Origin: Trebouxia sp. TZW2008
Lineage: Eukaryota > Chlorophyta > Trebouxiophyceae > Trebouxiales > Trebouxiaceae
Length of the DNA: 64,000 nucleotides
NCBI GenBank assembly: GCA_002118135.1
Contig: BDIU01000008.1
Location: forward strand, 248,001 to 312,000
Direction: 5' to 3'
How positions within the stretch are numbered: position 1 is the first letter of the stretch; each line of letters opens with the position of its first letter. The translations under genes were made by a program, and so were the position numbers. A model generated the notes under the pieces. That model ran no database searches, was not told where the DNA came from, and saw only the letters and a list, made by a program, of their open reading frames with translations. Below are positions 1 to 64,000 of this stretch, one piece after another.

Positions 1-622
1 GTATCATGCAATGTAGTGTAATGCGACAGCCTTGAAATAAGGCTTACCTGTAATGCCTTAGTGCATGAGAAGATTATGTACACAATGCCTGGCTATGGTG
101 TATTAACTTCTGACTGACTGGCTGCTTTCTGTTCAGATTTCTGCCACTCATATCCATATTGTAACAAACTCAATCTGTTTGGGTGTCCCATCTGCACTAC
201 TGTGCGATATGCACTTCAAGATTCGCACACAAAGTCAATGCAAGGACCACTGTGTCTCCAAGCTTCTCTTAAGACTTCAGTACAGTTATGGGACTCACTG
301 CCAGCTCAAATCTTATTCAAACAGTCAATTGATCTAGCACAGCTAGTGAGTGTCTGATGCTTTACCTGGAGCAGCACTGCTGCGGCAGCACTGAGTTGCC
401 TCTGGCTACAGAAAGTCTTGTCAAATAATGCCTGAATTTGTCTGATTCTGTGCAAAGTAGTGCAGCGTATGCCTCAGCTTGGGTGTGAGTGGTCTCACAA
501 ATTCTCTCATGGCCAAGTGGCCTTAGAGTCTCAAACAGGGCCTGAGAAAGCCAACTATTCTGTCCTAGCTCATCAAGCTCTGCTGTGATGGTAATGATTG
601 GCAGCCTTGAATCAAGAAACTG
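1..622. other. 3' flank of the CcdA gene, no gene supported
   Basis: No reading frame here matches a family I recognise and there is no convincing exon chain. It lies just downstream of the CcdA stop codon on the minus strand, so part of it is probably 3' UTR. A minus-strand donor-like site near 49-54 could belong to an exon of a gene mostly outside the window, but I cannot support it. Confidence 0.4.
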
Positions 623-3600
623 TCAAAAAGCTATTCTAGATAAAAGGGCATAGGTACCGCCTGCAAGCATAAGTACTCCACTGGCTGGTGTTACAATTGA
701 ACTGTACTGCCTCAGCGCCAGAATGTTCTTGAGAGCCCCAGTGAACGTTGCAGCAACCAGCAGCGGCGCAACGTACCTGCATCAACAAAACTCAACATCA
801 TGATTCTGACACACCAGCTGTGAATGACAGTGCAAAACATACATGCACGCGCTAAGCTGCAAGGACGCTGGGTCTTGCAATATGCTGGCAGAATTTAGAC
901 AGAGAAGAACATTTCCAACAGCAACGCAACATACCACAGACAGAGAAGCTAGCATGCCCAAGTGACCATCTATTTTCTATATACAGCGATGTGCTGGCCT
1001 TGACACGGTCAGCTGTGCTTTATAGTACAAGACATGCATGCATATATATTTGCATATTACATTAATTGCCTTTGTCACATCGCTTGTCCCGTGCTCGAGC
1101 TAGGGATCCGCCCTTCGTGTCCAGTATGATTGGTATGGGCTAGCACATGATCGAACTGTTTGGAGACAGTTGATTGCTTCTGTACGTACCTAGTTGGGCC
1201 TGCTGAGCCTGCCTAGCCCATCTTTTGAGTGAATGAGTGAGTGAGTGAGTGAGTGAGTGAGTGAGTGAGTGAGTGAGTGAGTGAGTGAGTGAGTGAGTGA
1301 GTGAGTGAGTGAGTGAGTGAGTGAGTGAGTGAGCGAGCGAGCTAGAGAATGAATGAATGAATGAGCTAGAGAATGAATGAATGAATGAATGAATGAGCTA
1401 GAGATCATTGCTGCTGACCTGGCAGATGCTAGGCTGGGAAGCAGTTCAGTGTTGCAATGCACTGACAGAACTAAACAAAAGGAGACAATGCCATGAAGGC
1501 CCTTGCAAAACAAGCTTGCAAAGCCATGCTTTGACAGCTCTTGTCAACGTCACAAAGAGCGGAGATTCAACAGCGGCCAAAATACTGCTCATCAGATACA
1601 ATACTCTTTTCAGGCTATGTGTGATTGTACGACTCACCCAGAGGTGTAGGCTAGCAGCAGGCCGCCACCTTCAAGGGGTCTGTGTGCTGTAGACACGTAA
1701 GCCAGCAAGGTGGCCAAGACTGGTGTGCTGCATGGTGACGCCGCCAGGGCGAATGTGAGACCAGCTGCATATGCCTGCAACACAAGCACACTGCTGAGCA
1801 TGCACAATGCATGCAGTGATTAATGTACGGCATGATGACGCTGCCAGGGCAAATGTGAGACCAGCTACATATGCTTGCATCGCAATGTTGTCATCCTATG
1901 TGCTGTATTACCACATTGTGTACTGCATGGCAATGTTGTCAAGGCAAAGGTGAAAGCAGCTGCATATGCCTGCACTTCAAGCAAGGTCGTCGACACTGAT
2001 ATGCTTCAGGGTGATGCTGCTAGGGCAAATGTGAGACCAGCTGCATATGCCTAAGCAGTGTGATGCTATCAGGGCAAGCACTGTGCTTCTGCATGGAGCT
2101 CTGACAACTGACGCGAAGCGCGACAAAGCCAACATTGCACTAGTGCTGCATGGTGAAGCTGCCAGGGCAGATGTGAGATCAGCTGCATGTGCCTGCAGCT
2201 CAAGCAATCTGCAGGTGCAGACGCCTTGACAAAGTGTGATGCATGTCATGACTAACATTGCACCAATGCGCAATGGTGCTGCCGAAGCAAAGGTGAGACC
2301 AGCTGTCTACGCCTGCAGCTTAAGCAGCATAGGCAACACCAATTGCATAGTGTTGCTGCATAGTGAAGCAAAGGTGAAACCAGCTGTGTATGCCTGAGCT
2401 GGAAAATGGGAGGGCCCTTGAGTGTGCGCACATCATTATCGAGGAAGAGCAGTCACAGGATACTGACGGTGTGTTTGTTTCTCTTGGAAACTAAAAGAGA
2501 TGGTGCAGTATGCTGACCTGTAGAATTGGAGGTGCTTTGAGGGTGCGCACATCCACGTCAAGGGAGGGCAGGCGCAGCGGCAGCACCTCCAACAGATTCA
2601 GCCCCATCACAATGGCCACCAAGCTCACACCTGTAGCCCATGCTTTCTTCTTGAAACATGGTCCGATTCTGACGCGGACGCTAGGCTAGGGTTGAGGGCT
2701 CTGCCAAGGTTGGTATCACCAGTTTGCTGTTAGTGTGATATCGAGTGTAGCCTTGTCAGATTATCCTTGGTAAGGTTTGCATTATAGTGGGAGCCTGACA
2801 GGGTCTTAGTCTCAAGGCACACAATGCGCAACCATATGTAATTAATTGATTTTGTGATATATTATGATGATTAACATCAGCATCATCATTACAACCATTA
2901 TCGTCATTGTGATGACTGGAATCATCATGATCACTAGCATTGTTCTGATTGTTACTACCACTGTTTCTCCTTGAATCACTCACCAAGAGGCAAAATCTCT
3001 CCTATCTGACCATATGCATTACCCACAGTTGTGGACACCACTCCAAGCGCAGCCAGAGTGGTAGCCAGCCCCAGAGCAAAGGCACCAGCCCTGGAAAGCA
3101 GCAAAAACAAGCAATCATCAAGCACATGAGAACATCAAGCAGCACCAGAAACAGAGATTGTGACAACAGGAATTCGTTATGAGGATACTCGGCGTAAGCC
3201 CATGCTTGATGCAAGCACAATGCAGTTGGACGGATTAATCACTATGTTCCAACTGCAATAGTACCTATGAGTAAGGACAGTTTGGTATAAGGGCATTTGT
3301 CTTGATGACCAAAGCAATTTTGATAAACAGAAATCACTATACTGCATCATGTGCAAAATTGCGCAGCCCAGGCAGCAGCTTATGCGTGAGTTGCAGTGTA
3401 GATGCCTCATGCTCAAGTGACCGTTGAGTCTGAAACTGCAATAGATTGAGGTACACTGGCGTTGCCTGCATGAGCTCCTGCTTGGGTCTAGGACAGATTT
3501 TCCCCTGATTGAATAGAATTGGGTGCAAGCAAGGCGCCTGAAGAGCTACCTGCCAACCAGCACTGAATTCTGGCTTGGTTTGTCAGCTTGATACCCTCCA

Positions 3601-4440: not shown

Positions 4441-5242
4441 GCGCTTCAGACCGGCACGACCTTCGGGGACAAGACTTCACCGGTTAGATCAAGCTAGCAG
4501 CGGGGCTGGTGCCAAGTCAGTCGTTTGCGTTGCCGCTGATGCGCTCACGGGTGTGGCCAACGGCACTGTGCCATGCTCCGAAACCAGCTTGGTATCAACC
4601 CACGTGCTGGCAAACATTGCATTGAATGTAGGCCTGCTGACAGCTTGAGGCTCGAAGGTCACCTGCGCATAAAAGTATCTGTGGCACCACTCACACCAAG
4701 CTGATGCATATGCCGCAGAATTTGCTGATAGCTTCCCAGCTGATCCTGTGCAAGCCTGAATCCTGGTACGTACACTAGCAGCTGAAGGCGTAGTTTCAGC
4801 AAACTTTGCTCTACAAGAAGCTTGTTGAAACTCGATAGCTCGCACTTCAAGCCAATCATGCTTGGATCTGTGTTGCTGCATGTTTTGTCAATAGCTGAAG
4901 TTGTGCTCAGCTAGCAAACACTGTCAGGTGGAACGGATCATGTGTCTGATGCCAAATAGCTACAACCACATGTACAGCTGGATTGCGCTAACAGGGTCGA
5001 CAGACGCGCTCATGCGAGTGATTGGCATCATAGCAATTCAAATATATCATAGCACAGTAGTTAGTGATGTCTGCTTGGTTGGTGATGTGGAAGCAGACTC
5101 CCAGAACTGCACTGACGAGCAAGTGACTGATGTTATCTCCATTGCCAAGTTTCGACTGTGCCTACTGCATCTCCGGCCACCATGAGGCCGCCGGAAACAG
5201 CAGCAAGAAACAGGGTCAAATGACATGCTCATGCAAGTAATG
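4441..5242. other. Intergenic: CcdA 5' region and WD40 gene 3' region
   Basis: Between the CcdA start and the stop of the upstream WD40 gene. A plus-strand frame 4439-4648 begins [15 protein letters not shown] and looks transit-peptide-like. It overlaps the CcdA start inside a GCATGC palindrome, and I found no downstream exon, so I do not call it a gene. At about 5127-5206 there is a degraded copy of the last 75 bp of the WD40 terminal exon (5243-5318). Confidence 0.5.
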
Positions 5243-8200
5243 TCATCTCCATTGCCAAGTTTTGACTGTGCCTGCTGCATCTCCAGCCACTATGAGGCCG
5301 CCAGGGACAGCAGCAAGAGCTCTTGCATCTTTCATAGCGGACAGCTGCCCTCGATCTTCAAAATCGGGCAAGCCGTGTAATCTGATTATGTTCTCCTGTG
5401 AGTGGGATGTGAGGACAACAGCTGCCTGCTTAGCATCAGAAGTGCCACACATGGCTAGCACAGCCCCATACTCCTCTTGCTGCAAGCATGGAGCTCTGTT
5501 AGATGCAAGCTTTTAGAGTAAACAGAAAAAACGTCAAAATTATGCCTCTGGCATCATAACTTGCGTCTTCCTTCAGTGTAGTGTACTCTTCCCTGAAACC
5601 CTGAACCCTGAAACTGGGCTTCTAAACCCTGATGGATGGGCCTAATATAAAAAAACTCGACAAATTAGTAAAACGAATTTTCCAAAAACCCTAAGCCCAC
5701 CCTAAGCGTTGAGTGTACACTACAATGAAGGAAATGCATAACCTGAGCCTGTATGAGCAGAGGCAGCCTGGAACAAGCTTGCGCTACCACACTTCAACAC
5801 AGGATGACTTGCAGGCAGGAAGCGCAAGGAGTGCTGCACAGACTTGTAGATCTGCACAATAGCATGAATATGCAGTGCAATTTGCTGCAAACAAGCGTAT
5901 CAGCAGTGGCCAGCTGCGGGTGCAGAAGTCAATTCAGCAAAGCGTGCTTGCTGGTCTGTATACAGCCTATAGTGTGCATTGTTGGCAGCAATGCATGTAT
6001 TGGCAATCTGACATGTCGTAACATATTTCGCAGTAGCAAGCAACACGAAGGAAGGTTTGATAGTGCATACCTGACCAGAGTCAGATGTAGATGGATGACT
6101 GTAGTTGGGTGATGTCTCAAGGATTGCATTTGGCTGGGGGTTTTCTGTAGGGCTCCACACTTTGACGCTGCCGTCTAGAGCACAGCTGAGCAAGTAACCC
6201 TGCATAGGCAGTGTTGCCCTCAGTTCTGGCTGCAGCCTTACAGCCAAAAGATCACCTGGAGTCGTTCTAAGAACATGGTACCTCGCCTGAGATTCATTGT
6301 CTGTGCATTCTCACTGGTGACCAACAACGGCAGCAGAACCGTCAGCGACGCATATCCCAGCTGACACATGTATTTTGAAATGCAGACAGGCTCAAATCAA
6401 CTCATGTCAAAATCTGAGGCATATAATTGCTTGCTCCTGACACCACAGGATGCCATCAAACATCTCTGTCTGCTTCACCAGGATAAGGATGCGGCACAGT
6501 TGCACATGACACGCTGATGCTTGCCTGGTATGGGACCAGTCCCATGACTATGCCAGAATAGTTGGGCGCAGCTGAAGGACCATGCGCACTGGGCAGTGTC
6601 TGTAAGCACTGCCCCAGCTGCATACTCCAAATCTGCAATGCAGTACACCATCACCGCGAATCGTCATTGTCATGCGTTCCAGTGAGGATCTTTGACCTAG
6701 CTAAGTGCATACAGAGCATTGAACTGCCTCTAGATAACACAGTACAGTTAGGTTTGTCAGCATGTACACCCATGGCATGCTACAATTTGGTGTTCACACA
6801 ACAGAACAACAAGACAGGTGCTTCAAATCTGCAATACAGAGTAAAAGACCTCTGATTCTGCATGGCGCGCTAGGTGCTGATGAGGATACGACGTGACAAT
6901 GCAACAAATATAGCAGCAGCCAATGCATACTGAAGTTGCAGGGTCGCAGATTGGGCCGCAATGACTACAGACTAGAATGCTTGTTGGATGGCAAAGTCCT
7001 GACGCGATTGTTGTTCATGACAATGTTGCATTAATGTGGCATTGATGTTGTGTGACATAAACCGCAAGCAATCATAAGCCTCAGATGTTCAGTTGAGTGA
7101 ATGTGAGGATGCATGTTGCAGACTGTGAGAGATGGACTGGCTAAGCAGCTTTATGTCCAACCTTGATGTTGCCGTGCCAGTCTGCAGAGAAAAGATACTG
7201 CTGGTCCACTGTGAGACACTGGACTGCACTATCATGACCCCCTGACGCCTGGTTTAGCTCTACCTGCATGCATGCCAAGGGCTTTCAGTGCAATGATACA
7301 CTTTGTGTATCAATCAATCAATACAATTTACAGTTTGGGGCAGGGAGCCAGATGTGACTCATCGGACTTCCTGGCTTGAAAGCACAGGTGAATGTGTCTG
7401 GCAACCAAAGGCAGCTGATCAGTGTTTGCCTTTGTTGCAGAGCTGTTCTGCATGCTGCAACCCAAGTCTGTGAGGAAGCTTAGTACATCATTTGCTTTCT
7501 CTCTGATTGGCAGCCGAACGCTTATACTTTTATTTTGCCTTTTCTCCTAGAGGTCATGTGACTGGTTCATGACACTGACAAGCCACGCAGCATTGAAGGA
7601 ATCTCACAATGCAAGACAGAGCATCGGCTGTGAAATGAGACGTTCATATGTAAGATCAGCATGATTGCAAATAGCGACTTGCAACGTGAAGTCGCTCGCA
7701 TGTTTTGCAGATGTTAAGCAGAAATAAGAAATGCTTACCAAAGCCTGGAACGCTTGACTTGTTGCATCAAACTGCCATACTTTGATGGTAGTGTCCTGAC
7801 CTCCACTGAACAAGAACTGCGCTGCCTGTGCTAGACATAACACAGCACCCTGCACAAGACACCCAGACTTGAAGCTGATATCTTGACCTCTAATGAACCA
7901 TAACTGCGCTGCCTGTGCTAGACAGCCACAGCATCCTGCACAAGACACGCAGTCAACTCCAGTCCAGTTTTACCCATGCATAATGGACCAAAACATATCA
8001 CAGGGATGGAGAAGTATGCAATGATGAGCTACTCACAAGTGAGCAAAAGCGCACATGGCACAAAAGGAGTCCACAAAGAAGTGATGCTACCAGTCATCAC
8101 AGGTGCTGAATGTGTGTGGCGCAAGTCTCGCTAAGATCACAGTACGCTGGAAGACCAGGGCATGCAGATAGCATATGGTGCACGCAGCAGCACTTGACAT

Positions 8201-10977: not shown

Positions 10978-13900
10978 TCAATACAAGAGAAGCTGACGCT
11001 CAAGCGATGATGTGGCCTTGGGCGGCTCTGTTGAACTCCCCAATGCGCGCTGTTCAGCTGAAAGTGGCACATAATGATGCAAGATGTTGGATGCTACAAG
11101 CTCCACATATTCATCAAAGTCAGAGCAGCTTTTTGTGAACATGGGGGTCTCTGCTTCTGCACGCATAGACACCAGCAAAGCTTCCTTGTTTGGCTCTTGA
11201 TGTACCTCAGACAGGTGCTCGAGAAAATCCTCTGTACAGAGTATGTTTGGGTAGCCGTACACAATGACAACAGCATGCTGTTTTGTGGAAAACACCTGCA
11301 AGCCAGCCAAGAAGGCTGAAATGCTCTTGCGATATGCTCTCTGTCTACACGTTTCATAGTACTGTATGCTTGATGCTAGAACACAGTATGATGTGTTGTG
11401 TCTGAAACTGAGGCTGCGCTAAGGAATGCATCCACGTCAAGAGCATACTGTGTGTGTGGTCCCACAGCTTCTGCACTTGCCTGCATTGTGCTGCTTTGCG
11501 GTGCTGCATTGCGGTGCTGCAACCACGCTCAGATGCATAGAATTGCATTCATCAGCAAATATGCACAAACATTGTGCATGTGCTGCATTCTTTGTGCAGC
11601 ATACCATGCATGTTTCGACACAAAATCTGACCAAAGGAAACAGGCACACAGTCTGTTCAAATCACAATATCTGCAATGCTCAGCACTCACTCAACAAGCC
11701 AGACTTGCAAGCATGAGACACTTCCTGGAAGCAATATTGCACACAACAAGTATTGTTGGGCTGCCCGCATTGAACAAGGCTTTCGTTATGACACCTGACG
11801 GTATACACCTTTTTTTTTACGCACAATGAGCAGAGTTACTTACCCCTCTGAGAAGAGCACATACAGTTCTGTTATACACTCTGTAGTTTTCCGCTGCGTT
11901 TTCTTTCAGAGCAGTTGCCAGGCGTGACATGCTGGTCATGACATGGCCAGGATGCTGTGACATGTCAGCGCTGTTAGTCATCTGCTGCAGCAAGTGATCT
12001 CGCTGAAGGGACAACTGTGCAACCTTTGCAAGCCAGATTCTTCTGAGCTGCAGCAAATCGCTGACTTGCGCATCAGACAGTTCCAGAGTTCTCTGCAGCA
12101 GGGGAAACACAGTCTAAGCACCAGCACTCTTCTGACATTACACGCGCAGAACTTGTGCATACAGGCTGTATGCAGACGCCGATCTTTTGGATTGTGAGAC
12201 AAATTTCAAGAGCTTTCAGGCAGTCTGAATTTTCCGTGGAAAGGCAACAGCTTTGGCTTTGAGGCATAAGCTGTTGCAGGAAGAGCACTATGGTGCTCAC
12301 CAGCAGCATAGAATACATGGCTGGTCCAGGGTGCTCATCTCGGGGCTTGCCTTCATCCATTTTGCCAGCCACGAAGGCATTCTGAGCTTCAGGATTATAA
12401 AGCTTCAAGCAGAATACAAGGGCAGAAGCCTCAACTGTCAACTGCTGCAGTTGCTCGGTGACTTCCTCATCGTTGTCGTAGAGCTGCATCATACAGTGAG
12501 CACCATTCAAAGCCAAGCCTCAATTTAAATGAAGGCACAGAGTGCAAGGGCAGAAGCCTGAATTGTCAATTGCTGCAGTTGCTCAGTGCCTTCCTCATCG
12601 TTGTCGAAGAGCTGCATCATGCAGTCAGCACCATTCAAAGCCAAGCCGCATTCTGCATAGAGGCACAGAATGCAAGGGCAAAACCCTCAACTGTCAGCTG
12701 CTGCATTCGTTCAGTGACTTCTTCATCGTTGTCATAAAGCTGCATCATGCCAAAAGCACACCATTGTCTTAAATGTGTGCCGTGCAGCAAGCACATCATT
12801 GTTGTAAATGTGTGCCATGCAGCAAGCCCATTATGGTCATATTGTCATAAAGCTGCATCATGCCAGAAGCACATCATTGTCTTAAATGTGTGCCATGCAG
12901 CAAGCATTTTATGGTGATAAAGCTGCATTATAAAGTCAGCACACCATTGTTTGAAAGCTGCGCCATGCAGTGAGCAGATCATTGTCATGAAACTGCGTCA
13001 TGCAGTGAGCACAACATAGAGGTTAGCTTCAGTCCTCGCAGTCATAAGGACAAGCAACAGTACCAATAACAGAGCAGCAAGTGACGAGTGCGATGCTGCA
13101 ATGATTCTTGGTTGCAACCGCCACTCATTTGCACGACTACTCAGACAACCATGCGAACACCATCACATTATATGGCTTGCCGAGGTCTTTGCTTGTGCAC
13201 CAAGAGGTTGTGTGCCTACACAACATTGAGGAACACATGTGCCAGATGTAGGCTGACCTGCAGCAGGTATTCTGCCAACTTGCGGACATAGTCTGTCCAC
13301 AGTGTGCAGAACTCTTTGAGTGACAGCTTGGCGACTTCGTGGACCCCTGAAGACAAGACAAGCTTGTGATTAGTGGAAGGTTCTTTGGTGAAGATATGAA
13401 TGGAACGCCGATCAGGCTTGAAAGCAACTTGTGAGCGTTTGTGCCGAAACTTTGCCAGAGGTCTAGCAGATGCACTGTGACTTAGACCTAAATGCCAGCA
13501 TGTGTGCATTGCGTAAATGAGTCACTGTGAAGGAACCAGTTAGGGCAGTGGGGCATAGACAATGCTAAAAACAAGCAACACAGGATGCATGGTTGCATCT
13601 TACCCATTGTATACTGTTCGCCCCACACAGAGACGGCGAGAGCAGGACCCTTGTCTGAGGCCTTAGTGTCGCATGCAGTGAAGAGGCGCTCATACTCTTT
13701 ATCCTGAACACAGCACACATGTATGCTTGCATTCTGGTGATTCAAAGCTGTGCATCAAGAAAGCTAATGCAGATCATTATCCAGGCATGCAGTGAAAGCT
13801 GCTCACACTCTGTTTCCTGAATACGGCACGTGCATTGGAGCACCTGCACTTTGGCATTCATGCACTCAAGATGTCAATGCAGATCTAAGTGCGGACATGC

Positions 13901-15448: not shown

Positions 15449-18400
15449 TCAGGTCATGGGTACTGCTGGGATTGGCACATAGTCATAGCTCAAACGTACA
15501 TACGGATTGATAATTTCTGTGTACTGCCAGAATCGATTCCAGTCCTGCATTTTCAAACGCTCATGAGCGCTTCTGAGGATAGTTTGCTTGCCAGGCAGTC
15601 CTTGCTGCTCCGCAATCTGATGCAATATGGTCTCTGCTAGAATGGAGTCTATGTCACTGTGTATCAGAACCTGTGCAGCTTGTTTCATTGTGAAGACCTG
15701 CAAAGCAAGAAGCCATATATTTCAGTCAAGAAAAAGCATAAACATAGACATCAAAATCAGGTAAACAAATACAAATCCATGTCAGGACCAACAATTGATG
15801 TCAGGACAAGTGAGGTAGGCTGCCACATGCGGGAAGCATTCACATACGCACAGACTGCATGAACATTGTTGTGCAGTGCATAGTTCTTGAGTTTGAAGTC
15901 AACTTCTGCTGCTGCTCATAAGCTTGTAAGCTTCTGCTGCACGTAAGTTTGAACAGAACAGGCTAGGGCACGCATCAATATGCAGACACCGTTTTGGGGG
16001 TCTAAAGAAGTGATTGCTGCAATGAGTGCATGTGTACAGTCTGCATGCAGCACCCAGCTAAAAGATAGGAAGGATGCACAACAGGAGTATCAGGACACTG
16101 AATGTAAGAACATTTTGTATGCAAGGACAATGCAGTCAGGAACCAGTCACTGTGTTCTGACTGCAACAGCACCTTTAAGTAAGGACAACTTGTTTCAAGG
16201 ACAATTTCTTGGAAACCAAAGGAGGTACAAAGAGAAGTCACTGTAGCTTACTCCTAAATAAATAGCCCAACACAGTCTCTGCACCAGCAGGTGGCATTGG
16301 GCGGCGTTCAGCCTCAGCTGGTTGGCAAGATTTGCCACTCTGGTAACGTCACCAAGCAAGGCAGCGCTTTTGTTTTGCACTTTGCCCACAAGAGCTGCTT
16401 GCTGTAGCTTGAGTTCATGCTGCTTGAGAAGAAACACCCTCCGCAGAAACATGAGGTCTTGGATCTGTCTGTCTGTCAAGTTGAAGATACTCTGCAGCAG
16501 ACAGCAACTGAGTTGAGTTTGAATTTGTCATGACCAAGCAAAGCAGCGCTTTTGTTTTGTTCTTTGCCTACAAGAGCAGCTTGCTGTAGCTTGAGCTCAT
16601 GCTGCTTGAGAAGAAACACCCCCCCGGAGAAACATGAGGTGTTGGATCTGCCTGTCTGTCAAGTCGAAAATGCTCTGCATCAGGCAGTCACGAGTTGCAG
16701 ACCTTTGTCATGACCAAGCAAAGCAGCGCTTTTGTTTTGTACTTTGCCTACAAGCGCTGCTTGCTGTAGCTTGAGCTCATGCATTTTGAGCAGAAACACC
16801 CTCCGCAGAAACATGAGGTCTTGGATCTGCCTGTCTGTCAAGTTGAAGATGCTCTGCAGCAGGCAGCAACTGAGACTGGGTGGAGGGTGAAGTTGGCTTG
16901 GCACAAAATGTCACCGAACACAATTGAGTGCAGACAGACGTGATTGAGGACTGATCACTCCAACCTGACAGCAATAATGCTGGTGCATAGTGACTCTTTG
17001 TTTTAAGGGCAGTCTCAAACAAATACAGCAGTTTTCACGACAACAAAACACTGTAGACTTACAATGAGTTACAGTGCTCAGTTCTCAGTCGTACGAGGAC
17101 ACTTTGGACAGGAACAAACATGTTCTTTACATGAACAAAACACTGTTGACTTACAAATGCTGTACAGATACAGTGCTGACTTGTCAATGATGTAAGAACA
17201 GTTTTGATGGGAACAGAGACAGTCACAACATTGACAGAACACTGTAGACTTACGATAAGGTACAGAGCTGGGTTGTCTGTGATGTCTGGGCGGGACAGCA
17301 GACTCTGCTGGACATGCGTGAGCAGATGCTGGCACTTGAGGCGCATGGCTTCCCACACCAGCTGACCTAGTCGGCTGCCTGCTTTGCCACAGACGTGCAG
17401 TTGGCCTTGCACAACATCTGTACAGCTCTGCAGCTCCCTCACATAGTCCTGCACCAAAGCAAGATATGCCTTGAGTTTGCACTTAGCCTTGTTGGCTTGA
17501 TATTTGGCTGGCTGCTTTGCTGCAGATGTGCAGTTGGCCTTGCACGACGTCTGTACAGCTCTGTAGCTCCCTCACATACTCCTGCACCAAAGCAAGCTGC
17601 CCTTGGTTCGGCTTGATCAATCATCAGGTTGCTGCTATGTCATGGTCATCGTGTTGGTGCTATGTTAAGTTAGCTTTGCACAGCTATACTGAAAGCTTTG
17701 CCGCACACATGCACTTGGCCTTGCACAACATCTGTACAACCCTGCAGCTCCCTCGCAGCGTCCTGCATCACAGATGAGCAATTGAGCAACACAGACGTGC
17801 ATTCAGCCTTGCACAACAGCTGTACAGCTCTGTAGCTCGCTGGCATAGTTCTGCACCACAGACACTCACTTGGTCTTGCACGACGTTTGTACAGCTCTGC
17901 AGTCCCCTGACCTAAAGCTGCACCAACGCAAGCTAAGCTTTGAGCATACACTTAGCCTTACACAGCACCTGCACAGCTCTTTAGACTCTTCCTGACATAG
18001 TCTTGCGCCGCAAACACAGCAAGCCTCACTTGGTGTCGGCTCAGCACAGCTATTCTGAAAGCTTTGCCACACACATTCATTTGGCCTTGCATAAAGTCCG
18101 TACAGCTCTGCAGCTCCCTCACATAGTCCCGCACCAAGCAAGCTCTTCAGATTGACTGTATTGTCAGCAAACCACCTCCCAATCACTACTCCCTTTTGCA
18201 AGGCTCCAGCATTTCAATTGCTGACCAATGCTTCGCAAGACTAGTCGATGCATTCTCACTGCAGTGCTTCTGACTACCAGGTTCTGAGTTTGATGTAGGG
18301 CTGTTGCTGTGGCTACCTATTCCAATTGTCAGGCAAATAAACACTTGTACAGCAGTTGCTTGACACACCTGCCACAAGGCCTTGAACTCCTGAGCAGGCA

Positions 18401-44900: not shown

Positions 44901-46402
44901 TATCAGTTCTACAACGGCTTTAGTGGGCAGGCCCTGGTGGACGACATCAGTGCAGCTGCCTACAACGTGGTGTTCACCAGCATTCCCATCCTGCTGTTTG
45001 CTGTGCTGGACCGGCCAGTCATCAACTTCTCATCACTCATACGCTACCCTCAGGTAAATTGCTGTGTGCCTGCCTGCTGCAATACAACACTTTCCAGAGC
45101 AGCAATACCAGTAAGCTTGTCTTGCAAGGATGCTATTAGCACATCTGGCATGCACCGATCATGCCCAGACGGCTGTGTGTGTTCAACCTGCAGCTGCTTC
45201 AACTGGGCAATGCAGTAAATGAAAAGCCTGGCTTTCGATTGCAGCGCACACAACACTTCTGTTGGTTGATTGAGGCATTTGCTGGGTGGTTGCAGACGCG
45301 GTGCATTGCATTCTGGTCAAGATTGCCTGAAGCAGCCACTACACAGTGCACACAGCGCAAGAGGCCTTCTGTCCAGCGTGCAAGCCCTGCACCCCCTGGT
45401 GACAAGCTGCTGCCCCTGCTGCAGGTGTACAATAATCAGAAGAGTCTGACCACCCGGGTGTTCTGGAAGTCAGGAGTAGGCATGGCTCTGCTAGATGCAG
45501 CCATAGCCTTCTTCATCCCCTACTACAGCATAGTCGAGGCAGGCCAAGACTCCATCACAGACGTCTACTCAGTCGGCAAGGTCGTCTTCATCTGTTTGCT
45601 CAGCGCTGTGACTTTGGAGATTTGCGTCATTGCACGCTACTGGACCTGGCTGTTCCTGGTCTTCGTCTTCCTCAGCTACTGGCTAGTGTACCCCTTCGAG
45701 GTGGTCTTTCCGGCCATTGAAAGGGGCATCAACTACTACGACCCCGGCCAGTGGGGGGTGGGTGAGAGGGTGTTCCGCTCCCCCACCTTCTGGTTTGTGC
45801 AAATCACCGTGGCGCTCACTTGCTTTGGTCACCGTTACTTGGAGCGTGCGGTGGTGTGGCTGTTCCACCCTCAGGACAACATGATCCTCGAGGAAATGGA
45901 GACACTTGACGGCGGTGCTGCTGACATGGGTTGGCAAACCAAGCAGCGCATGAACATGCTGGGAGTAGGTGCTCCTACTGTCAAAGCAGACCCAGAGAAC
46001 CCAGAAGCTGTGCATGGACTCATGAACGGCCATTCGCACTCAGACGCAGCCGAGTTCACTCAACCCGTGGCAGAACTCAACGGCAAAAGCCCCTACAGCT
46101 CCCCAGAGGGCAGCGCCATGAGTAGCCCCCGCCCCCCCATTGCCCCTGGGACCCTGCCTAAGTCGAAATCCAACAGGTCCAGCAGGGATGCAGTACAACC
46201 TTTCCCTGATGAAAGGCAGCGGCAGGCAGGCATAGCAAGTCAAGCTTTCTTTGCACAGCAGCAGCCTGGAAATGGCAACATACATGATCAGCCACAAGTG
46301 GCCCCAAGAGATGGGCCAGCTGAGCTAGAAATGACACATCAGCCATCGTCGGGAAATCCGTTTGGTCAAAGCTCTGTCCCTCCATCTCGTGCTTGGCTTT
46401 AG
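29967..46402 (+). CDS. P4-type ATPase (phospholipid flippase)
   Basis: Twenty-one plus-strand exons: 29967-30335, 30548-30781, 31028-31199, 31739-31854, 32377-32475, 32931-33024, 33909-34064, 34871-35019, 35722-35877, 36203-36369, 37590-37761, 38111-38258, 38809-38924, 40312-40617, 41217-41450, 41971-42117, 42492-42666, 42884-43041, 44167-44331, 44751-45053, 45425-46402; 1537 aa. P4-ATPases flip aminophospholipids to the cytosolic leaflet, usually with a CDC50 partner. Seen: NLDGESNLK (DGET-like actuator loop), [12 protein letters not shown] (P4-specific M4), [12 protein letters not shown] with the phosphorylated Asp near 543, [34 protein letters not shown] and six C-terminal membrane segments. 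Odd points are a His-rich insert ([13 protein letters not shown]) in exon 12, GC donors after exons 7 and 16, and a 160-residue low-complexity tail. The exact 5' edge of exon 2 is the least certain boundary. Confidence 0.93.
31600..31705 (+). repeat. Decayed copy of flippase exon 4
   Basis: GGTGCAGGCAGTACAGAGG...TGGGAGAG...CAAGTGGGGCAGGTGTTG matches exon 4 (31739-31854) and lies about 130 bp upstream of it. It carries substitutions and a stop. Confidence 0.88.
33191..33243. repeat. Perfect 23-bp inverted repeat with 7-nt loop
   Basis: Arms 33191-33213 and 33221-33243 (ATTGCCAACTTTCTGATGCT...) are exact reverse complements. They lie in flippase intron 6. Confidence 0.95.
33350..33890 (+). repeat. 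Four decayed copies of flippase exon 7 5' edge
   Basis: GGGGACCAGCAGGCCAAGG with upstream TGTCAACTGTNTTG context (acceptor plus first codons of exon 7, 33909) recurs at about 33360-33430, 33450-33520, 33540-33600 and 33800-33880, all upstream of the true exon. Confidence 0.85.
34360..34860 (+). repeat. About six copies of flippase exon 8 5' edge
   Basis: The acceptor and first codons of exon 8 (GCAGGCTCATATGACCGCTT) recur with a period near 84 bp through 34360-34860. The copies at about 34620-34660 and 34780-34825 are almost intact, including CTGCCTGCAG. The last occurrence, 34871, is the real exon. Confidence 0.9.
37066..37165. repeat. Two exact 44-bp tandem units
   Basis: GCTGGCGGGTATCAGTGCAG followed by CATGAAGCGCTATGCTGTCTTCAT occurs twice head to tail, then a partial unit. 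It lies in flippase intron 10. Confidence 0.9.
38667..38757. repeat. 15-bp minisatellite, six units
   Basis: TGGATCATTGATGCC and TGGGTCATTGATGCC units alternate 52 bp upstream of flippase exon 13. Confidence 0.95.
39634..39807. mobile_element. pogo/Tigger-like MITE, best copy
   Basis: 174 bp bounded by CAGTAAACTCTCTTC and its imperfect inverse AAAGAGATTTTACTG, flanked on both sides by TA as a target duplication. The interior has GATGTAAGGACAATG and AAGTAAGGACAATTTGATG motifs and no coding capacity. The ends resemble the widespread CAGTA...CTCT termini of pogo/Tigger elements (family knowledge). It lies in flippase intron 13. Confidence 0.85.
39940..40010 (+). repeat. Decayed copy of flippase exon 14 5' part
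   Basis: CGCCAGGTGAGTTGGCTTTA...GGTCGCCAGCTTGAGTTCAAA parallels the exon 14 segment coding for [18 protein letters not shown] (40318-40375), with a TAG interrupting it. Confidence 0.85.
40108..40292. repeat. Perfect 36-bp inverted repeat abutting exon 14
   Basis: Arm 40108-40143 (CTTTCTGTACATTCTGCTGT...) is an exact inverse of 40257-40292. The direct repeat GCATGCAAAGAAGCAGGCTG also occurs at 40143 and about 40240. The right arm ends 20 bp before the exon 14 start. Confidence 0.93.
40676..40790 (+). repeat. Near-intact copy of flippase exon 14 3' edge with donor
   Basis: Repeats the last 98 bp of exon 14 (codons for [11 protein letters not shown] to LHLFATQ) with a usable CAGGTCAGCG donor, about 50 bp after the real exon end. 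Confidence 0.92.
41035..41110 (+). repeat. Copy of flippase exon 15 5' edge
   Basis: Codes for [21 protein letters not shown], near-identical to exon 15 (41217), about 185 bp upstream. A short degraded copy of the exon 15 3' edge (CCAGACGCTGGCATGAAGGT) is at about 41556-41577. Confidence 0.9.
43105..43320 (+). repeat. Two decayed copies of flippase exon 18 3' edge
   Basis: CCCATCCCAGAAGGCGGCCA...ATGGCTGAGTTTGAGGTGC at about 43120-43175, and a more eroded copy at about 43255-43320, both follow exon 18 (ends 43041). Confidence 0.88.
43421..43734. repeat. Long inverted repeat, 131-bp arms, 52-bp loop
   Basis: GTTCACACGCATCC... at 43421-43551 is mirrored by ...GGATGCATGTGAAC at 43604-43734 with few mismatches. 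It could form a large hairpin in the flippase transcript (intron 18). Confidence 0.92.
43748..44115 (+). repeat. Inverted and direct copies of flippase exon 19 5' edge
   Basis: GTGCAGATGCACAAGGCAG, the acceptor and start of exon 19 (44167), recurs at about 43867, 44024 and 44070. The copy near 43770 is inverted, forming arms 43748-43787 and 43867-43906. Confidence 0.8.
44395..44690 (+). repeat. Copies of flippase exon 19 3' edge and exon 20 5' edge
   Basis: 44400-44470 repeats the [18 protein letters not shown] 3' part of exon 19. 44597-44685 repeats the start of exon 20 (acceptor, then codons like [21 protein letters not shown]). Each lies on the side of its parent exon. Confidence 0.9.
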
Positions 46403-51543: not shown

Positions 51544-54500
51544 TCAGGAGTGCTGAAAGGCATAGATGCAAGCACTGGAGTCATCAGATCCAGCAACCAC
51601 ATGACTGGCATCTGGGCTGAGGGCTATGCTCTGAATGCCCTTGGTGTTGCCTGTCCTGGTCTGTATACATACCCCTGCCAACCACACATGCAGTGAGTCA
51701 TGCTTCTGTGCATGAGAGGTTCAAAGGCAGGTTGACTGTGCAATAAGCATGTCTGATAAGCTTGACTTAAATTGTATACACTGCTGCATGGGCCATGACA
51801 TGAGACAGCCAAAACAGAAAAAGCAGAGCGCTGTACATGGACTGGTCCTCAGAACTTGACATAATTGGCAAGGTATTTGCACACCCTCAGCAACAGTCTT
51901 GGTGAATGGCAAATTTGCATACCTGTGCGTAGATCCCAGCATCTGACCGCACCATCTAGGCAGCCTGTGAAGATCAATGGCTGGGTGGGATGACATTGCA
52001 ATGCCACCACTGCCTGCAAGTCAGCCGAATCGACTTCTTGACAGGCTTTTGAAATGAACTCATACAGCATCATAAGCAACATGAATAACATCCAGCATGA
52101 GCAACGCTTTCCTTATTGCATACTGCGCATCGTGCAAACTCTGTTGGAGCTTTGTGAACGATGAAGAGCCTGGAATTGTATAGTCACAACGTTGCATGCA
52201 GAAGTCCTGCAATGCCAGGAATACCTCTGGATGTTCACACGTGCCTCTGACTGATAAGGTGGCATTGTCCCACACCAACACCTTGCCATCAATGCTAGCT
52301 GTGGCAGCAACAGGGAATGCTGAGGAGAGGGCAACAGCTTCCACAGAGTCAGTGTGACCTGCAAACAGCGACAAGTCAGGCTACATCGCTCAGCAAAGAT
52401 GTAAGCGCTGAACTCATCAAAGACCGAAATGTAGAATGCAGCTTCACAGTGCTTGCACTGTCACTTGAGAGGACATAAGTTCTGTTGGCTGCTGAGCTTG
52501 TGCAGCATTAGCAGGTTCAGTGCAGACATGCGGATGCTAGCTTTGATATAGAAAACCTGCCATGTATTTGCTTGTGCATGTCAAAATTGTTCAACAACAT
52601 GACGCCTGCTTGGGTTTGCCAACAAGCAGCAGCGGAGATCAAGAAATTCAGCGTGAATATCCTGTCACATCAGCAGGCAAGCTGGGATGAAATGATGAGG
52701 AAAGCACTTGCCTGCAAAGGTGCCCAAGATTTTGCCAGTGTGTAGGTTGCTGATCCTGGCAGTGGTATCTTCAGAGCCAGTGATGGCCACTGTTGAGTCA
52801 GCGCTGACCGCCACTGATGTCAAGCCTGCACCGTGACCGTGCTCAATATAGATTGACGAGCACCTTCATGAACACCGTGATAAACATGCATAGAAAATCA
52901 ACTTGCCAAGCGCCTGACAGCCACTGATGTCAAGCCTGCACCGTGACATTGCTTAATGTAGATTTACAAGCAGCTTCCACTGACGCATGGACAGACATGC
53001 TTTATGCTTCAAGTCATGGCATGATGCATCGACACACTTTGAGTCAGAAGCTGCAGCTCCAGGCAGATCCTACACAGTAAGCAGCTTCTGGCATTGATGC
53101 ATGCACTGATGCATGGACAGACATGCTTCATGGCTGTAGTCATGGTATGATGCATTGCTAGACTTTGAGTCACAAGCACCTTCATGACCACCGTGATCAG
53201 CGTGCACAGAAAAGCAGCTTGCCAAGCACCTGACCAGCACCTTCACGAGCACCTTGACATTCATTTATTACATTCATTCTGATCTTGAGAAGCATGACAG
53301 TATGTAATTCAGTAATCTCTCAACATAAGGGCACTCAATATAAGGACATTTTTGATGTAAGGACAATGCAAATGGGCACCAAGCCCTGCGTGCTGACTAC
53401 AGTGGTACTTCTGAATAAGGACAATTTGATGTAAGGACACTTTTCTTGATGACCAATGCAGACATTAAACCAACAGATTTCTGTGTAGTAGATCATGTCT
53501 GTATGCACATGACAGAAGACATGCATGCATTTGGTATTGCGATGCTGAGGAGCAAACAGCTATGAAACGCAGCACCTGGAACAGGTTGTGACAGTGCTAA
53601 GGCAACACAACCATTAATGGCACGGGAGTGATGACCTTGAGATTAGCAGAAAGCTGGCAATTGCAGGCCTTTTTTTTGCACTGATACAGACCTAGGTGGC
53701 CCCACCGAGCCTGCCTAGTATGATTGTCACATGGTGACCGTTTTCATGATCACATGCACCGTATTTCTGTTCAACAGCTGCTTAATCAGTTCTTCCATGC
53801 ATTTTGCGTCTTCTTCTTGCGATGTTTGTTGTGTATACAGCGGTTTCAACTCCAAAGGGGTGACCAGTGTTGGAAAGCTCAATGGCAACGTGACAATTGG
53901 TTTCAGAGCCCACGGCATGGTCTGCTGGTGCTGACATAAGTGTGGTGAGAAATTTGCCACCTAAAGCAGGGTATGTAGCAGCATCATCTGCCAGAGCTTC
54001 AAGTAGCAGATTCTGCACCGCACGCATGTCAGCACCAGCAGACCATGCTGTGGGCTCTGAAACCAATTTTCAAGTTGCTCTAGAAATGTCTATCAAAACA
54101 GCTTAATTTAATTATCAAGACAACTGTCTGGAACCACGGCTGGCCTTCTGAGTTCAACAAATGTGCTGTGATGTAGCCTGTGCTTGCTACTTTTCATGTC
54201 TGCGGATGGAATGCAAGTGCACCTGCTTCATGGAAGCAAGCCATAACTTTAGATAGTGCCTGTGCAGCAATGCACCGTTCGCTTGCTGTTCTAAATGTCT
54301 GTACATTGCATGCAAGCGCACCTGCTTCATGAAAACCGTGACCTTGGACGGTGCCTGTGCAGCTGCCTGACTTGGGGTCCCAGATCTTGAGGGTGGCATC
54401 CCCCTCCCCACCCCCGGTCACAACTGCTTTGCCGTCGGGCGTGAATTGGCCACAGCGCACTGCCCCAGTATGCCCATAGAAGACCTGCAGCTCTGAAAAG

Positions 54501-56572
54501 GCAATCTGTGAGCTTTTAGCTAGTACTGTGCAAATTTGCATCATTCTGCACCTCCTAAACTGCTGAAGAGATTTCAGGTCTAGACTCTGCATTTACAAAA
54601 CAGTTAAGAGTGCACAGTTTGCGCTGATACCATTGCGCAGGCACTTGCAGTACTGGCTGAGCTGATCTGCATCATGTCGCCAGTTTGAGCATTCAACATC
54701 CATGCAGTGAAGTCCTCAGAAGCTGCCAGGACTACATGTTCCTTAGGGCATGAAGCAGCCTGAGATCACTGCCTATCGACCTGGCAAATGCAGTCATCTG
54801 ACCTGCATCATGTCTCCAGCCTGAGCTTTTCACATCCATGCAAAGAAGAGCTCAGAGTTTGCTAGGAGTGCATGTTCCCTAAGGCTTGAAGCAGCCGGAG
54901 ATCACTGACTATTGACCTGACAAATGCATTATTTTCTGACCTGCATCATGTCTCCACTTTGAGCAAACCACATCCATGCAGTGAGGTGCTCAGAGCCTGC
55001 TAGGAGCACTCGTTCCTAAGGCATGAAGCAGCTTGAGATCACTGGCTATGAACCTGGCAAAAGCAGTATTGCCTGACCTGCATCATGTCTCCGCTTTGTG
55101 CATTCCACATCCATGCAGTGAAGTCCTCAGAGCCTGCTAGGACCACGTTCCCTCTGGGGTGCCAGTTCACCCACTCTATACCCTCCCCAGGCCCCTCAAG
55201 GCTATGTATGCACCGCCCGCTTGTGCTTTCCCATATTGACACCCTGCCTGACACAAGCACAGCTGAATCACATGCTGAGAAAGAGCTTTTTGTGTCTTGA
55301 GCAAGAGAAAGACTGAAGACTTAAAGCAAGGCTGAAGTTGATGCATGCGAACAGGATGGAGCAGCTTGACACAAGCACAGCTTGATCACGCGCTGACGAT
55401 GGGCCTTGTGCAGGCATTCTGTATGGTGTGACTCACAAGCTTGGCAATAGCGTTGTTCTTTGCAGACATGGGTCTGAAACATGGCCGCAGGCATCACAAG
55501 CACTGCAGGTATGACATTTCACTTTCTGCTGTAATGTGAATCAAGAAGCGTCAGTGCTCCTTGGGTTCATCCAGCCATGCATGACTTGCTCATGTGTGTT
55601 TGTGGTCCTTTGAGCTCACAGCAGCCAGCATGCTTGCCGATCATATGCTGGCAAGCATCTGATGCAAGCAACCTGTATGATCTTACTCACAAGCTTGACG
55701 ATAGCATTGTTCATTGCCAAGACATGGGTCTGAAACATGGCCGCAGGCATTACAAGCGTCACAGTTATGACATCTTGGTTTCTTCTGTGATATGAGTCAA
55801 GAAGCAACAGGGCTCCCTGGGTTCATTCAGACGTGCATGACTCGCCAGTGCTGTCGTGGCACTTTGTGTGTGCTTTTAACCTTTTGGGCTCACAGCAGCC
55901 AGCATGCTTGCTATGACAAAGATAGTCATGAACTGCTGCACATATACCTAATGGCATGCAGGCAAAGAATGCGTTTGAAGACTCACTATCTAGACTTCCG
56001 GAAGCTAGCAACGTTCCTGCGCTGTTGAAAGCCAGTGCAGCAACCTGCAGCAGCGGGATATCTGTGGTGAGCACACCCACCACTCAATAATCAGCAAACA
56101 TCTCAAAAGTGGCCCAAAATGATCATACCGAGTCTGTGTGGCCCTTGAGTGCATGGTGCCCTTCTTGTCCCACCTGCACAACATGCAAATTGACCCTCAG
56201 AGACTGAACACCAATCATGGTTGGGCACACACCTCTGTGCTTCATTTCTTTCAAATTGTTACTGCACCTTCCATATGTATGCCATGTCATCACCGCCTCC
56301 TGACGCTAACATATCGCTCTGAGAGGGGTTCCAAGCAACAGCAAATACAGCATCTGCAGAGGAGATTACAGTGTCAGGGACGTTCATTTGCACATAAACG
56401 AGGCAAATGGTGTCATTGGCACTGGCTGTTGACCTGTGTGCTGAGTAAATTTGTGTATCGAGTCATCAGTAACCTCGTTTGTGCTTGCTTCGGCGTCTTG
56501 CCCCTCTTCTGAGTCACTCTCGTAGCCTCCATCTGGGGATAGCGAACAGTGTTTGGTTGAGCTGGCAGGCAT
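51544..56572 (-). CDS. AAMP/Sqt1-like WD40 protein
   Basis: Ten minus-strand exons: 56434-56572, 56268-56353, 56129-56173, 55987-56044, 55078-55247, 54343-54484, 52712-52825, 52225-52358, 51923-52013, 51544-51674; 369 aa. The acidic N terminus (GYESDSEEGQDAE) and WD repeats match angio-associated migratory cell protein. Its yeast relative Sqt1 chaperones ribosomal protein uL16 (family knowledge). Seen: FAVAWNPSQSDMLASGGGDD, LAFNSAGTLLASGSLD, IEWVNWHPRGNVVLAGSEDF, FTPDGKAVVTGGGEGDATLK, VAITGSEDTTARI, GCLDGAVRCWDLRTG and SPDASHVVAGSDDS. The donor after 52712 is GC (GCAAGT). The acceptor of the 55247 exon was chosen over one 4 nt away because only it keeps frame. Start ATG 56572 begins MPASSTKHCS. 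Confidence 0.92.
52910..53275. repeat. Decayed copies of AAMP-like exon 7 edge and tandem repeats
   Basis: GCCACTGATGTCAAGCCTGCACCGTGAC at about 52919 copies the 5' edge of exon 7 (52825). Then a unit containing ACTGACGCATGGACAGACATGCTT...TCATGGCATGATGCAT...TTTGAGTCA occurs at 52978-53050 and 53105-53175. Confidence 0.8.
53310..53483. mobile_element. pogo/Tigger-like MITE
   Basis: Again 174 bp: CAGTAATCTCTCAACATAAGG at the left, TAAGGACAATTTGATGTAAGG inside, ACAGATTTCTG at the right. Ends have drifted relative to 39634-39807. It lies in AAMP-like intron 6. Confidence 0.75.
53685..53740. mobile_element. Fragment of the GAGCCTGCCTAGC dispersed repeat
   Basis: ACCTAGGTGGCCCCACCGAGCCTGCCTAGTATGATTG matches the unit at 1136-1212. 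Confidence 0.45.
53896..54068. repeat. 43-bp inverted repeat in AAMP-like intron 6
   Basis: AATTGGTTTCAGAGCCCACG... at 53896-53938 is mirrored at 54026-54068 with one or two mismatches. Weaker similarity extends outward, so both strands read MVSEPTAWSAGAD. It may be a foldback element. Confidence 0.9.
54190..54342 (-). repeat. Decayed copies of AAMP-like exon 6 3' edge
   Basis: GGTGCCTGTGCAGC with flanking CTGCTTCATG context repeats at about 54215-54275 as a degraded version of the donor side of exon 6 (54343 onward). Confidence 0.7.
54655..55077 (-). repeat. Three tandem copies of AAMP-like exon 5 3' edge
   Basis: CTGCATCATGTCTCC...CATCCATGCAGTGAAGTCCTCAGA marks copies beginning at about 54667, 54803 and 54941. 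The real exon end is at 55078. The period is 136-138 bp. All copies lie downstream of the exon and keep the donor. Confidence 0.93.
55400..55915. repeat. Tandem duplication of about 255 bp in AAMP-like intron 4
   Basis: GACATGGGTCTGAAACATGG CCGCAGGCAT and CTCACAGCAGCCAGCATGCTTGC both occur twice in the same order, at 55405-55650 and 55670-55910. Confidence 0.9.
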
Positions 56573-58738: not shown

Positions 58739-59969
58739 TTGGCAATGATACACCAAGACCGTTCTTGCCGCATTGCAGCACTCATGCAGTTCAATTTTGC
58801 AGCCCCAGAAAGCTAGGAGTGAGTGGCAGAAGCCTTGATGGAGTTCTGCTGTCCATATAGTTTGACGGCTGTTCCATGTTGTCACAACAGCCTAGCAGAT
58901 ACTGATCATAATTGAGTCTTTGGCAGCAACAATAGGATTGAGTGTTCTGTCTGTTGTCTCATAATTTGCCATGGACAAACATATGACTTTGACACCAATC
59001 AAGCTTCATATGGAGCATCCTGCATGCGATGTGAGTCAACCCAGCAGCAGCACATCGTGCGTGTAGCGTTGCGGCCCTGCAACATGGTCAGTGTTCTGCA
59101 GTGCCATTCTGCACCCGTTTTGCAGGCTTGCTTTTCCAGCTGACTGCATTTTGCATGTCATGTCTGAATGCCGCACATGCTGCTGGAGACTCTCACATGC
59201 TGGAATGACGAATTGTATTTACCTGTATCTCCTCCACAACGGCACTGAAGCATCAAGCGACAGAAGGCATCAAACCAGTGGTGTCACACCTTCAGGCATA
59301 AGCTGCCAATTTGACAGTGTTATAAGCTATCATGGCTTGATTCCTGGAAAAATGCTCAAGTCAAGTGGCAAACCACTTCAGCGCCTTATAAGCACGCTAA
59401 GCCGTACTCACAACAGGCGCTGCCATCATGTGCATTCAACCATACTTTTACTTATCTGGTCCCTCTAATTGCTTTGCCATTTGGCAGAACGTCAATGTCA
59501 GCAACAATCTCAGGCATGGTCACACTTACTGTGCCCTTTTCAAGAGTGTGTTGACTGAGAAATGACGCATTGTCATGTTGCTCACAATAATGGACCCCGG
59601 GTAGCCATAACCATTGCATGTGTTTGCAACCAGCTTCATCTGTTCCATGCATATCTAGTAGGCACTTTGTCAGGACAGAGTAGTATGTGTGACTCAACCC
59701 AATATGCTGATGCTGACTCAAGAATACTGTGTGTGGAATCAGAGCCCAGGGCAGAGCAGTATGTGATCAACCCAATACTGATGCTTACAATCATCCTTAG
59801 CAGTGGTGAGTGGACGAATTACGAGTGAGCGACGCGCCAGCGTTCCATTCTTAGGCCTTATCATGTCAGCCCAGACTAGACCAGGCTGTTGCCACTTATG
59901 GAGACCCTCGTCATGATGCCAGCTTACACGGCACCTAGTTGCGTAGACGTCTCCTTCTTTCAGGTTCAG
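58739..59969. other. Convergent 3' regions of uL18c and coiled-coil gene
   Basis: No gene supported. A minus-strand tail near 59460-59545 reads VSVTMPEIVADIDVLPNG and could be a lost exon, but I find no partner exons. Otherwise nothing stands out. Confidence 0.45.
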
Positions 59970-62867: not shown

Positions 62868-63186
62868 GGGATTAGCTGCTGTGCAATCAACGGTGCGTTC
62901 TTGCGAACTTTGCCGTGGCCAATAGAGCTGCCTCTAAGTGACTATAAGCGCGCGATGACAAGAATGCCGGTCTGGACACAAGGCGAGAGCAAACCGCAAA
63001 TACGCTGCACTCGACATGCGCATCGATTGTGCACGATCAGGTGTCGCAGAATTCCTCCGAGAAAGGTCAAGTCTGAAGTCGAGTTGACTTTCACGTCAAG
63101 CAAAAGCCCGTGACGCGTTGTGGTCGCAACAGCGCACCTTGTTGCATTGTAGCGCCTGGTGTCGCACGGCGCAAGTGTCGTGTCGT
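62868..63186. promoter_or_regulatory. Divergent upstream region of coiled-coil and GNAT genes
   Basis: 319 bp, relatively GC-rich, between opposed start codons at 62867 (minus) and 63187 (plus). No specific sites assigned. Confidence 0.5.
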
Positions 63187-63561
63187 ATGCTTTCGGTCAA
63201 GCCTTCACCTACAAGTGTATCTGCAGCAAAACCCAGCCAGGCGTTACTCAGAACTGTCGGCAGTAGCGCCCCAGCGCGGCATCACTTACGACTTTTTCAA
63301 GACCCTGCTCTGTCAGCAAACCCGCGATCACCCGCTGCGCCCCTTTTATGCAAGTGCGTCCGCAGAAGCCGAGAGCGAAGTGTATCTGACCTGCAAATAC
63401 CTCGAGGCGCACACGGTCTTGGGTATCAACGGCGCCTGCTCATTGCCTTGAAGACAGCTGAGAGTCAGCAAGCGTCGACGCAGCAGCTCGTTTTCAGAAG
63501 CGCCACTTCGCCTGAAGACCTGCACCAAGCATCTGCACTCAGGGCTGAGGCATATTATGAG
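63187..63561 (+). CDS. GNAT N-acetyltransferase, first exon (gene cut by window end)
   Basis: One open exon of 125 codons from ATG 63187 to a GTATTG donor at 63562. It begins MLSVKPSPTSVSAAKPSQAL, an Arg/Ser/Ala-rich presequence that fits plastid import, and ends VFRSATSPEDLHQASALRAE then AYYE. This matches the start of the GNAT fold (FRxA...LRAxAFYE) in plant plastid acetyltransferases. The acetyl-CoA-binding motif must lie in later exons, and I could not find those in the remaining 440 bases. Family assignment rests on a short segment. Confidence 0.6.
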
Positions 63562-64000
63562 GTATTGCCAATACATAGTCGGCATCCATAACAGCTTCTT
63601 ACATCTGCTTGTGACTTCATTGCACACTTGCAGCAACACTATCGCATATTGCCAGTGGTTGTCATAGTTGCTTTGTCTGTTTTTTGCAGTGTACTAGATA
63701 AGCAGTATCACGACTGAGCGCCTGTTTATACACTGCTAGCATTGCACACCACCAAGGCATGAATTTGTTGCCCATATGAGGCAATGCGGTGCCTCTGACT
63801 CAGGGATTGAGACCTGCATCAGACAGCCTGTCACTTGTGCCTCAAGCGCCTCAGGCAGACATTGCAACAGATTGCTACAACCTCATTCAAATGCATCTAC
63901 TGTGGCATTGGTGAACGCCTTTGGACACACTACTAAAATGCTGACATGCCGTTCAGCCATTATCCGCCTAGTAAGCACTACTGACTACAATGAACAAAGC
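63562..64000. other. Probably intron of the GNAT gene
   Basis: No second exon with a convincing acetyltransferase match. TTTTTTGCAG at about 63683-63692 is a possible acceptor but the following frame stops quickly. Confidence 0.4.

What the first reader, a model, noticed from the sequence alone, without database searches (positions are those of the whole stretch)
1..64000. Window-wide 'exon echoes': introns built from decaying tandem copies of their own exon edges
Seen directly in at least eight of the genes here: CcdA, the ZFWD-like WD40 gene, both bZIPs, PDE12-YRDC, the flippase, GGP, the AAMP-like gene and, briefly, uL18c. Segments of about 40-170 bp spanning an exon/intron boundary are copied one to seven times into the adjoining intron. 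Copies of acceptor-side edges lie upstream and copies of donor-side edges lie downstream. Copies nearest the exon are usually the most intact, and distant ones carry indels and stops. This suggests recurrent outward tandem duplication anchored at exon boundaries, which lengthens introns and multiplies splice sites. I know of no named process that predicts this polarity.
Basis: partly seen in the sequence, partly recalled or inferred. Interest (0 to 1): 0.88.

Follow-up and report, generated by a model that had tools for sequence, protein, structure and literature searches.

The report
Exon-edge tandem duplication debris in introns
In this lichen alga (likely Trebouxia or a close relative) many introns hold decaying copies of the neighbouring exon's edge; they are likely leftovers of ordinary small tandem duplications, whose striking polarity follows from simple geometry, although DNA overlapping exons appears to be duplicated a few times more often than pure intron for a reason still unknown.

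Summary
The echoes are real and not confined to this window. In 264 kb (window plus 200 kb of the same genome) there are 213 local direct repeat pairs against 2 inverted, in 94 arrays. All 35 assignable edge copies lie on the intron side. That polarity needs no new process: a tandem duplication crossing a boundary always leaves the intact exon on its own side and the spare edge in the intron. Same-exon duplications are in frame in 7 of 8 cases, and echoes evolve nearly neutrally beside a constrained exon. Homology runs on past the splice site. What random placement does not explain is abundance: counting only arrays visible by their intronic part, 16 of 34 touch exons against 25% expected, an excess that lies in multi-copy arrays and fades with looser exon sets. 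Simulations fit if exon-overlapping units are 2-4 times over-represented. 'Outward from the exon' is a modest trend. No long-period array is 95% identical or more, so activity looks old or episodic. A known kind of event on an unusual scale, with one open bias.

The parts
29967..46396 (+). P4-ATPase (flippase) gene, 21 exons, 20 introns; the best-supported gene model
   Evidence: spliced alignment of P0001; homology
31608..31698 (+). echo of acceptor edge of exon 31739-31854, period 125, 87% identical, in-frame stop
33358..33900 (+). multi-copy echo array upstream of exon 33909-34064
34361..34870 (+). multi-copy echo array (periods 75-170) upstream of exon 34871-35019
38251..38334 (+). 41-bp tandem duplication across the donor of exon 38111-38258
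   Evidence: TRF; exon
40689..40817 (+). echo of donor edge of exon 40312-40617; 9 synonymous and 2 nonsynonymous differences, one of the few that look constrained
41038..41086 (+). echo of 5' part of exon 41217-41450, upstream; 6 synonymous, 0 nonsynonymous
41545..41579 (+). echo of donor edge of exon 41217-41450
43112..43318 (+). two echoes of donor edge of exon 42884-43041
44397..44469 (+). echo of 3' part of exon 44167-44331, downstream
44596..44674 (+). echo of acceptor edge of exon 44751-45053, upstream
36464..36886 (.). wholly intronic tandem array in the same gene (contrast case)
37061..37156 (.). perfect 44-bp x 2.2 wholly intronic tandem duplication (young contrast case)
12538..12748 (-). 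two echoes of acceptor edge of predicted exon 12301-12483
17506..18142 (-). six echoes of acceptor edge of predicted exon 17254-17448; some with stops
17042..17193 (-). two echoes of donor edge of exon 17254-17448
26225..26339 (+). echo of donor edge of predicted exon 25881-26176 (PDE12-YRDC gene), with stop
26832..27444 (+). four echoes (period about 172) of acceptor edge of predicted exon 27445-27645; that exon lies in an ORF carrying the start of a YrdC domain
54182..54268 (-). echo of donor edge of predicted exon 54322-54484 (WD40 gene)
   Evidence: WD40
54662..55016 (-). three echoes of donor edge of predicted WD40 exon 55078-55194
5130..5208 (-). copy next to the 3' end of a WD40-like exon (ORF 5243-5512); edge not modelled in the strict set
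7881..7952 (-). copy upstream of a WD40-like exon (7781-7849 in the relaxed prediction)

Best explanation
The exon echoes are direct, local, decaying copies of exon edges, most likely left by ordinary small tandem duplications (periods mostly 60-230 bp; interquartile 131-185 bp at exon edges) and likely sorted afterwards by selection. Geometry (deduced): a unit crossing a donor or acceptor leaves the exon whole on its own side and puts the spare edge in the intron, so donor copies must lie downstream and acceptor copies upstream. Selection (shown for the survivors): duplications inside an exon persist almost only when a multiple of three, while boundary-crossing and intronic ones persist at any length. 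Decay (shown in aggregate): the spare edge accumulates stops, frameshifts and amino-acid changes at close to a neutral rate while the exon changes mainly at synonymous sites; the exon's constancy keeps old copies recognisable (inferred). Array growth by renewed duplication next to the exon is inferred from the modest near-to-far gradient and from the exon excess among multi-copy arrays. One step is descriptive only: units that overlap exons must be about 3 times (2-4) over-represented to fit the counts; whether that is a mutational preference for exonic DNA or unmodelled loss of intronic copies is untested.
For: Direct versus inverted 213:2 at 20-1500 bp, against 24:11 over the whole range 1.5-50 kb, and none in the shuffles. 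Polarity: 18 acceptor copies upstream, 17 donor copies downstream, 0 the wrong way; a simulation of tandem duplication with intact exons kept, which has this geometry built in, gives 221 right-way and 0 wrong-way of 230 exon-edge arrays (no exon bias). Period a multiple of 3: 7 of 8 same-exon pairs, 14 of 41 exon-edge, 5 of 19 intronic. 55 non-redundant echo sets: nonsynonymous fraction 0.524 against 0.566 (neutral echo, exon changing synonymously), 0.723 (both neutral), 0.207 (both constrained); 25 of 55 already carry a stop or frameshift. Homology past the splice site in the 48 short-alignment edges falls from 0.88 to 0.33 over 45 bp, ungapped, like simulated full tandem units (0.73 to 0.34; last three bins nearly equal); spacer similarity is higher in the direction tandem units predict (mean z 1.84 against 0.63, n = 27, p = 0.012). 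90 of 94 units match nothing else in the 264 kb; the other 4 each match one place. Two-copy arrays visible by their intronic part touch exons in 4 of 14 cases, as the unbiased simulations predict (0.20-0.28). Introns with a detected duplication have median 720 bp (n = 53), without 347 (n = 178). With a 3-fold exon weight, and in-frame exon duplications fully tolerated, the simulation gives 0.60, 0.45 and 0.35 for three ratios observed at 0.68, 0.47 and 0.42.
Against: Without the exon weight, simulations at the basic substitution rate mostly predict 0.34-0.46 of edge-plus-intron arrays at edges against 41 of 60 observed, and about 0.15-0.28 of those visible by their intronic part against 16 of 34. 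An older burst gave 0.62 and faster introns 0.39-0.59 (two-copy arrays), but the first makes edge copies too diverged (median 77% against 82%) and the second is at odds with echoes that change no faster than synonymous sites (my arithmetic). The corrected excess sits in multi-copy arrays (12 of 20 against 0.24-0.38), and these are far too common for the simple model (31 of 73 arrays against 4-8%); re-duplication driven by existing homology, as I simulated it, raised their number but not the exon share. The raw excess is weak among the most diverged pairs (10 of 19 against 0.43 below 78% identity), where visibility alone should make it largest. The nonsynonymous fraction is slightly below the neutral expectation (p = 0.037), and some echoes (40689-40817, 41038-41086) look constrained. 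Splice dinucleotides are kept in 80 of 91 aligned echoes, more than the roughly 0.72 expected, though 80 of 105 if unaligned ones count as lost. No young copies: 0 of 73 arrays with period of 100 bp or more reach 95% identity, against a steady process.
Confidence: 0.75

Rival explanations
1. Exon-targeted mutational process: duplication is directed to exonic DNA or its edges (for example by transcription, nucleosome phasing or repair at exons), and introns of this alga grow outward from their exons.
For: Edge excess replicates outside the flagged window (26 of 35 against 43%; corrected 9 of 18 against 27%, p = 0.037); same-exon duplications are also frequent (8, against 19 intronic); edge units have longer periods than intronic ones (median 153 against 117, p = 0.006) and exons are GC-richer (0.557 against 0.484); nearest copy tends to be most intact; the corrected exon share is highest in multi-copy arrays.
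Against: Corrected excess loses significance with the loosest exon set (6 of 18 in each half) and is absent in two-copy arrays (4 of 14); exonic extents show no significant pile-up at a fixed distance; homology does not stop at the edge.
Confidence: 0.3
2. Alternative (mutually exclusive or extended) exons: echoes are functional copies used in alternative splicing.
For: Splice dinucleotides kept in 80 of 91 aligned echoes; my gene finder called several echoes exons, e.g. 44601-44660 and 40695-40775; a few echoes show almost only synonymous change.
Against: In aggregate the echoes evolve near-neutrally and 25 of 55 carry a stop or frameshift; edge periods ignore the reading frame (14 of 41 multiples of three); in the flippase the homologue aligns end to end using one copy of each exon.
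Confidence: 0.06
3. Mobile element or introner copies inserted near exons.
For: Repeated units in many introns.
Against: Units are local and locus-specific: 90 of 94 have no other match in 264 kb; local orientation almost always direct. A whole-genome DNA search did not complete.
Confidence: 0.02
4. Assembly artefact.
For: Absence of young copies with period of 100 bp or more could mean that near-identical copies were collapsed.
Against: Collapse would remove copies, not create diverged ones; the differences fit age plus purifying selection on the exon.
Confidence: 0.02

Closest known systems
Tandem genomic duplication crossing an intron-exon boundary in a potato RdRp gene (Ma et al. 2016, PMC4974935; passages seen)
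   Same: [quoted passage not shown] the paper also notes an 83-bp tandem duplication inside an intron.
   Different: There the copied acceptor is used and a new intron arises; here the copies mostly decay inside an existing intron, in many genes and in arrays.
Partial tandem duplication of exons with intronisation in Drosophila (Lehmann et al. 2010, PMC2891723; passages seen)
   Same: Partial exon copies in tandem, one copy becoming intronic; the authors say such duplication may be commoner than their data suggest.
   Different: Acts through AG/GY motifs inside exons to make new intron positions; here existing boundaries are copied and, in the flippase, intron positions need no change.
Internal gene duplication (Gao and Lynch 2009; not read, cited in PMC4974935)
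   Same: Intragenic duplication as a common mutation.
   Different: The citing passages mention exonic segments and whole introns; whether it surveys decaying boundary fragments was not checked.
Intronic minisatellites (from general knowledge)
   Same: Tandem arrays in introns.
   Different: Units here often contain exon sequence and are long, few and diverged.

Membership tests
Local tandem (internal gene) duplication | Copies direct and close together | tested here: met
   213 direct against 2 inverted at 20-1500 bp
Local tandem (internal gene) duplication | Unit covers the whole period (true tandem, not a pasted fragment) | tested here: met
   Clear in arrays whose alignment fills the period; only in aggregate for the short pairs: homology past the splice site like simulated units, spacer similarity in the predicted direction, p = 0.012, 11 of 27 with z above 2
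Intron gain by tandem duplication | A new spliced intron is created | tested here: not met
   For the flippase, one exon copy is used per position and the echoes lie in introns; other genes rest on prediction; no RNA
Mutually exclusive or duplicated functional exons | Both copies keep a reading frame under constraint | tested here: not met
   In aggregate: nonsynonymous fraction 0.524 against 0.207 if both constrained; 25 of 55 broken; a few possible exceptions
Mutually exclusive or duplicated functional exons | Both copies found in mRNA | not testable with these tools
   No RNA reads
Introner elements | Many near-identical copies dispersed over genes | tested here: not met
   90 of 94 units without any other match in the 264 kb held; whole genome not searched
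   Excess in all raw counts (41 of 60 against 40%); corrected 16 of 34 against 25% with strict exons, not significant with the loosest set
   Exonic extents 12-151 bp, no significant departure from uniform (p = 0.066, n = 36); homology crosses the edge

The most novel reading that the evidence does not exclude
This alga has (or had, in a past burst) a duplication process that strikes exonic DNA about three times as often as intronic DNA; since only boundary-crossing or in-frame hits survive, it ratchets introns outward from their exons and seeds each intron with spare splice sites.
Probability: 0.3. Interest if true: 0.75.

Novelty: new variant of a known kind. Interest (0 to 1): 0.5.

Why it matters
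It shows how an apparent directional law can arise from undirected mutation plus geometry plus selection, and gives yardsticks (visibility correction, period modulo three, echo neutrality) for judging such claims. If the threefold exon bias is a property of mutation, it would be a new driver of intron length and of cryptic splice sites, testable by comparing strains. Practically, echoes fool gene finders: mine called several of them exons.

Tried and rejected
Echoes copying the exon alone (stopping at the splice site): rejected in aggregate by the anchored profile. Faster intron decay as the reason for the excess: would need introns changing about 3 times as fast as synonymous sites, but the echoes, which lie in introns, change no faster than synonymous sites (my arithmetic). 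Homology-driven re-duplication: no rise of the exon share in my simulation. Low-complexity masking hiding intronic repeats: edge and intronic counts identical with the filter off. GC of intronic arrays: not different from random intron (p = 0.145). Junction microhomology: only 12 near-perfect duplications, periods 15-60, too few to judge. Pfam scans for gene names: clear support for YrdC and, weakly, WD40 only. Literature: among the capped lists I saw no title on decaying exon-edge arrays in Trebouxia or on this polarity; the Trebouxia A48 genome paper (passages of PMC12712428) has the word intron once, in a reference title.

Limits. Apart from the flippase, exons come from my own gene finder (270 predicted; 19 of 21 flippase exons exact, with the flippase in its training); the strict set used has 260, with the curated flippase exons put in and scores under 6 dropped. 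The 200 kb come from two large contigs that I knew from the WD40 hits. The blastn set-up finds almost no periods under 60 bp. Of 94 arrays, 21 lay outside predicted gene territory and were left out of the placement tests. Each array is represented by its best pair. The simulations use idealised exons and a chosen burst window. The 'same exon' class includes one array (period 160, in the C62:100001-150000 run) that is probably an edge array.
Full report
What the sequence is. The window is contig 8, bases 248001-312000, of a 68.5-Mb genome in 527 contigs. A flippase drafted from the window is 82% identical to a protein of Trebouxia sp. C0005 and 78% to one of Trebouxia sp. C0010, so I take this to be a Trebouxia or close relative. 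Spliced alignment of the C0005 protein gives 21 exons at 29967-46396 with normal splice sites apart from two GC donors.

Noticed in passing
264 kb studied (window and L009-L028): No tandem array with period of 100 bp or more is at least 95% identical (0 of 73), which suggests an ended burst or collapse of young copies in the assembly.
   Followed up: partly
P0001 (Trebouxia sp. C0005 flippase): The 90% cluster of this protein holds 39 member sequences on 2 contigs, perhaps many predicted isoforms.
   Followed up: no
window 1226-1396: A (TGAG)n tract of about 29 units, followed by GAAT repeats, near the start of the window.
   Followed up: no
window 34064-34065 and 42117-42118: Two of the 20 flippase introns begin with GC rather than GT in the spliced alignment.
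   Followed up: no
window 40689-40817 and 41038-41086: Echoes with almost only synonymous differences from their exon; possible functional alternative exons or chance.
   Followed up: partly
window 23943-24144; L019-L023 run (C273:100001-150000) 25396-25912 and 26661-27310: In-frame tandem repeats inside predicted coding exons (periods 72, 132, 120).
   Followed up: partly
   Followed up: partly
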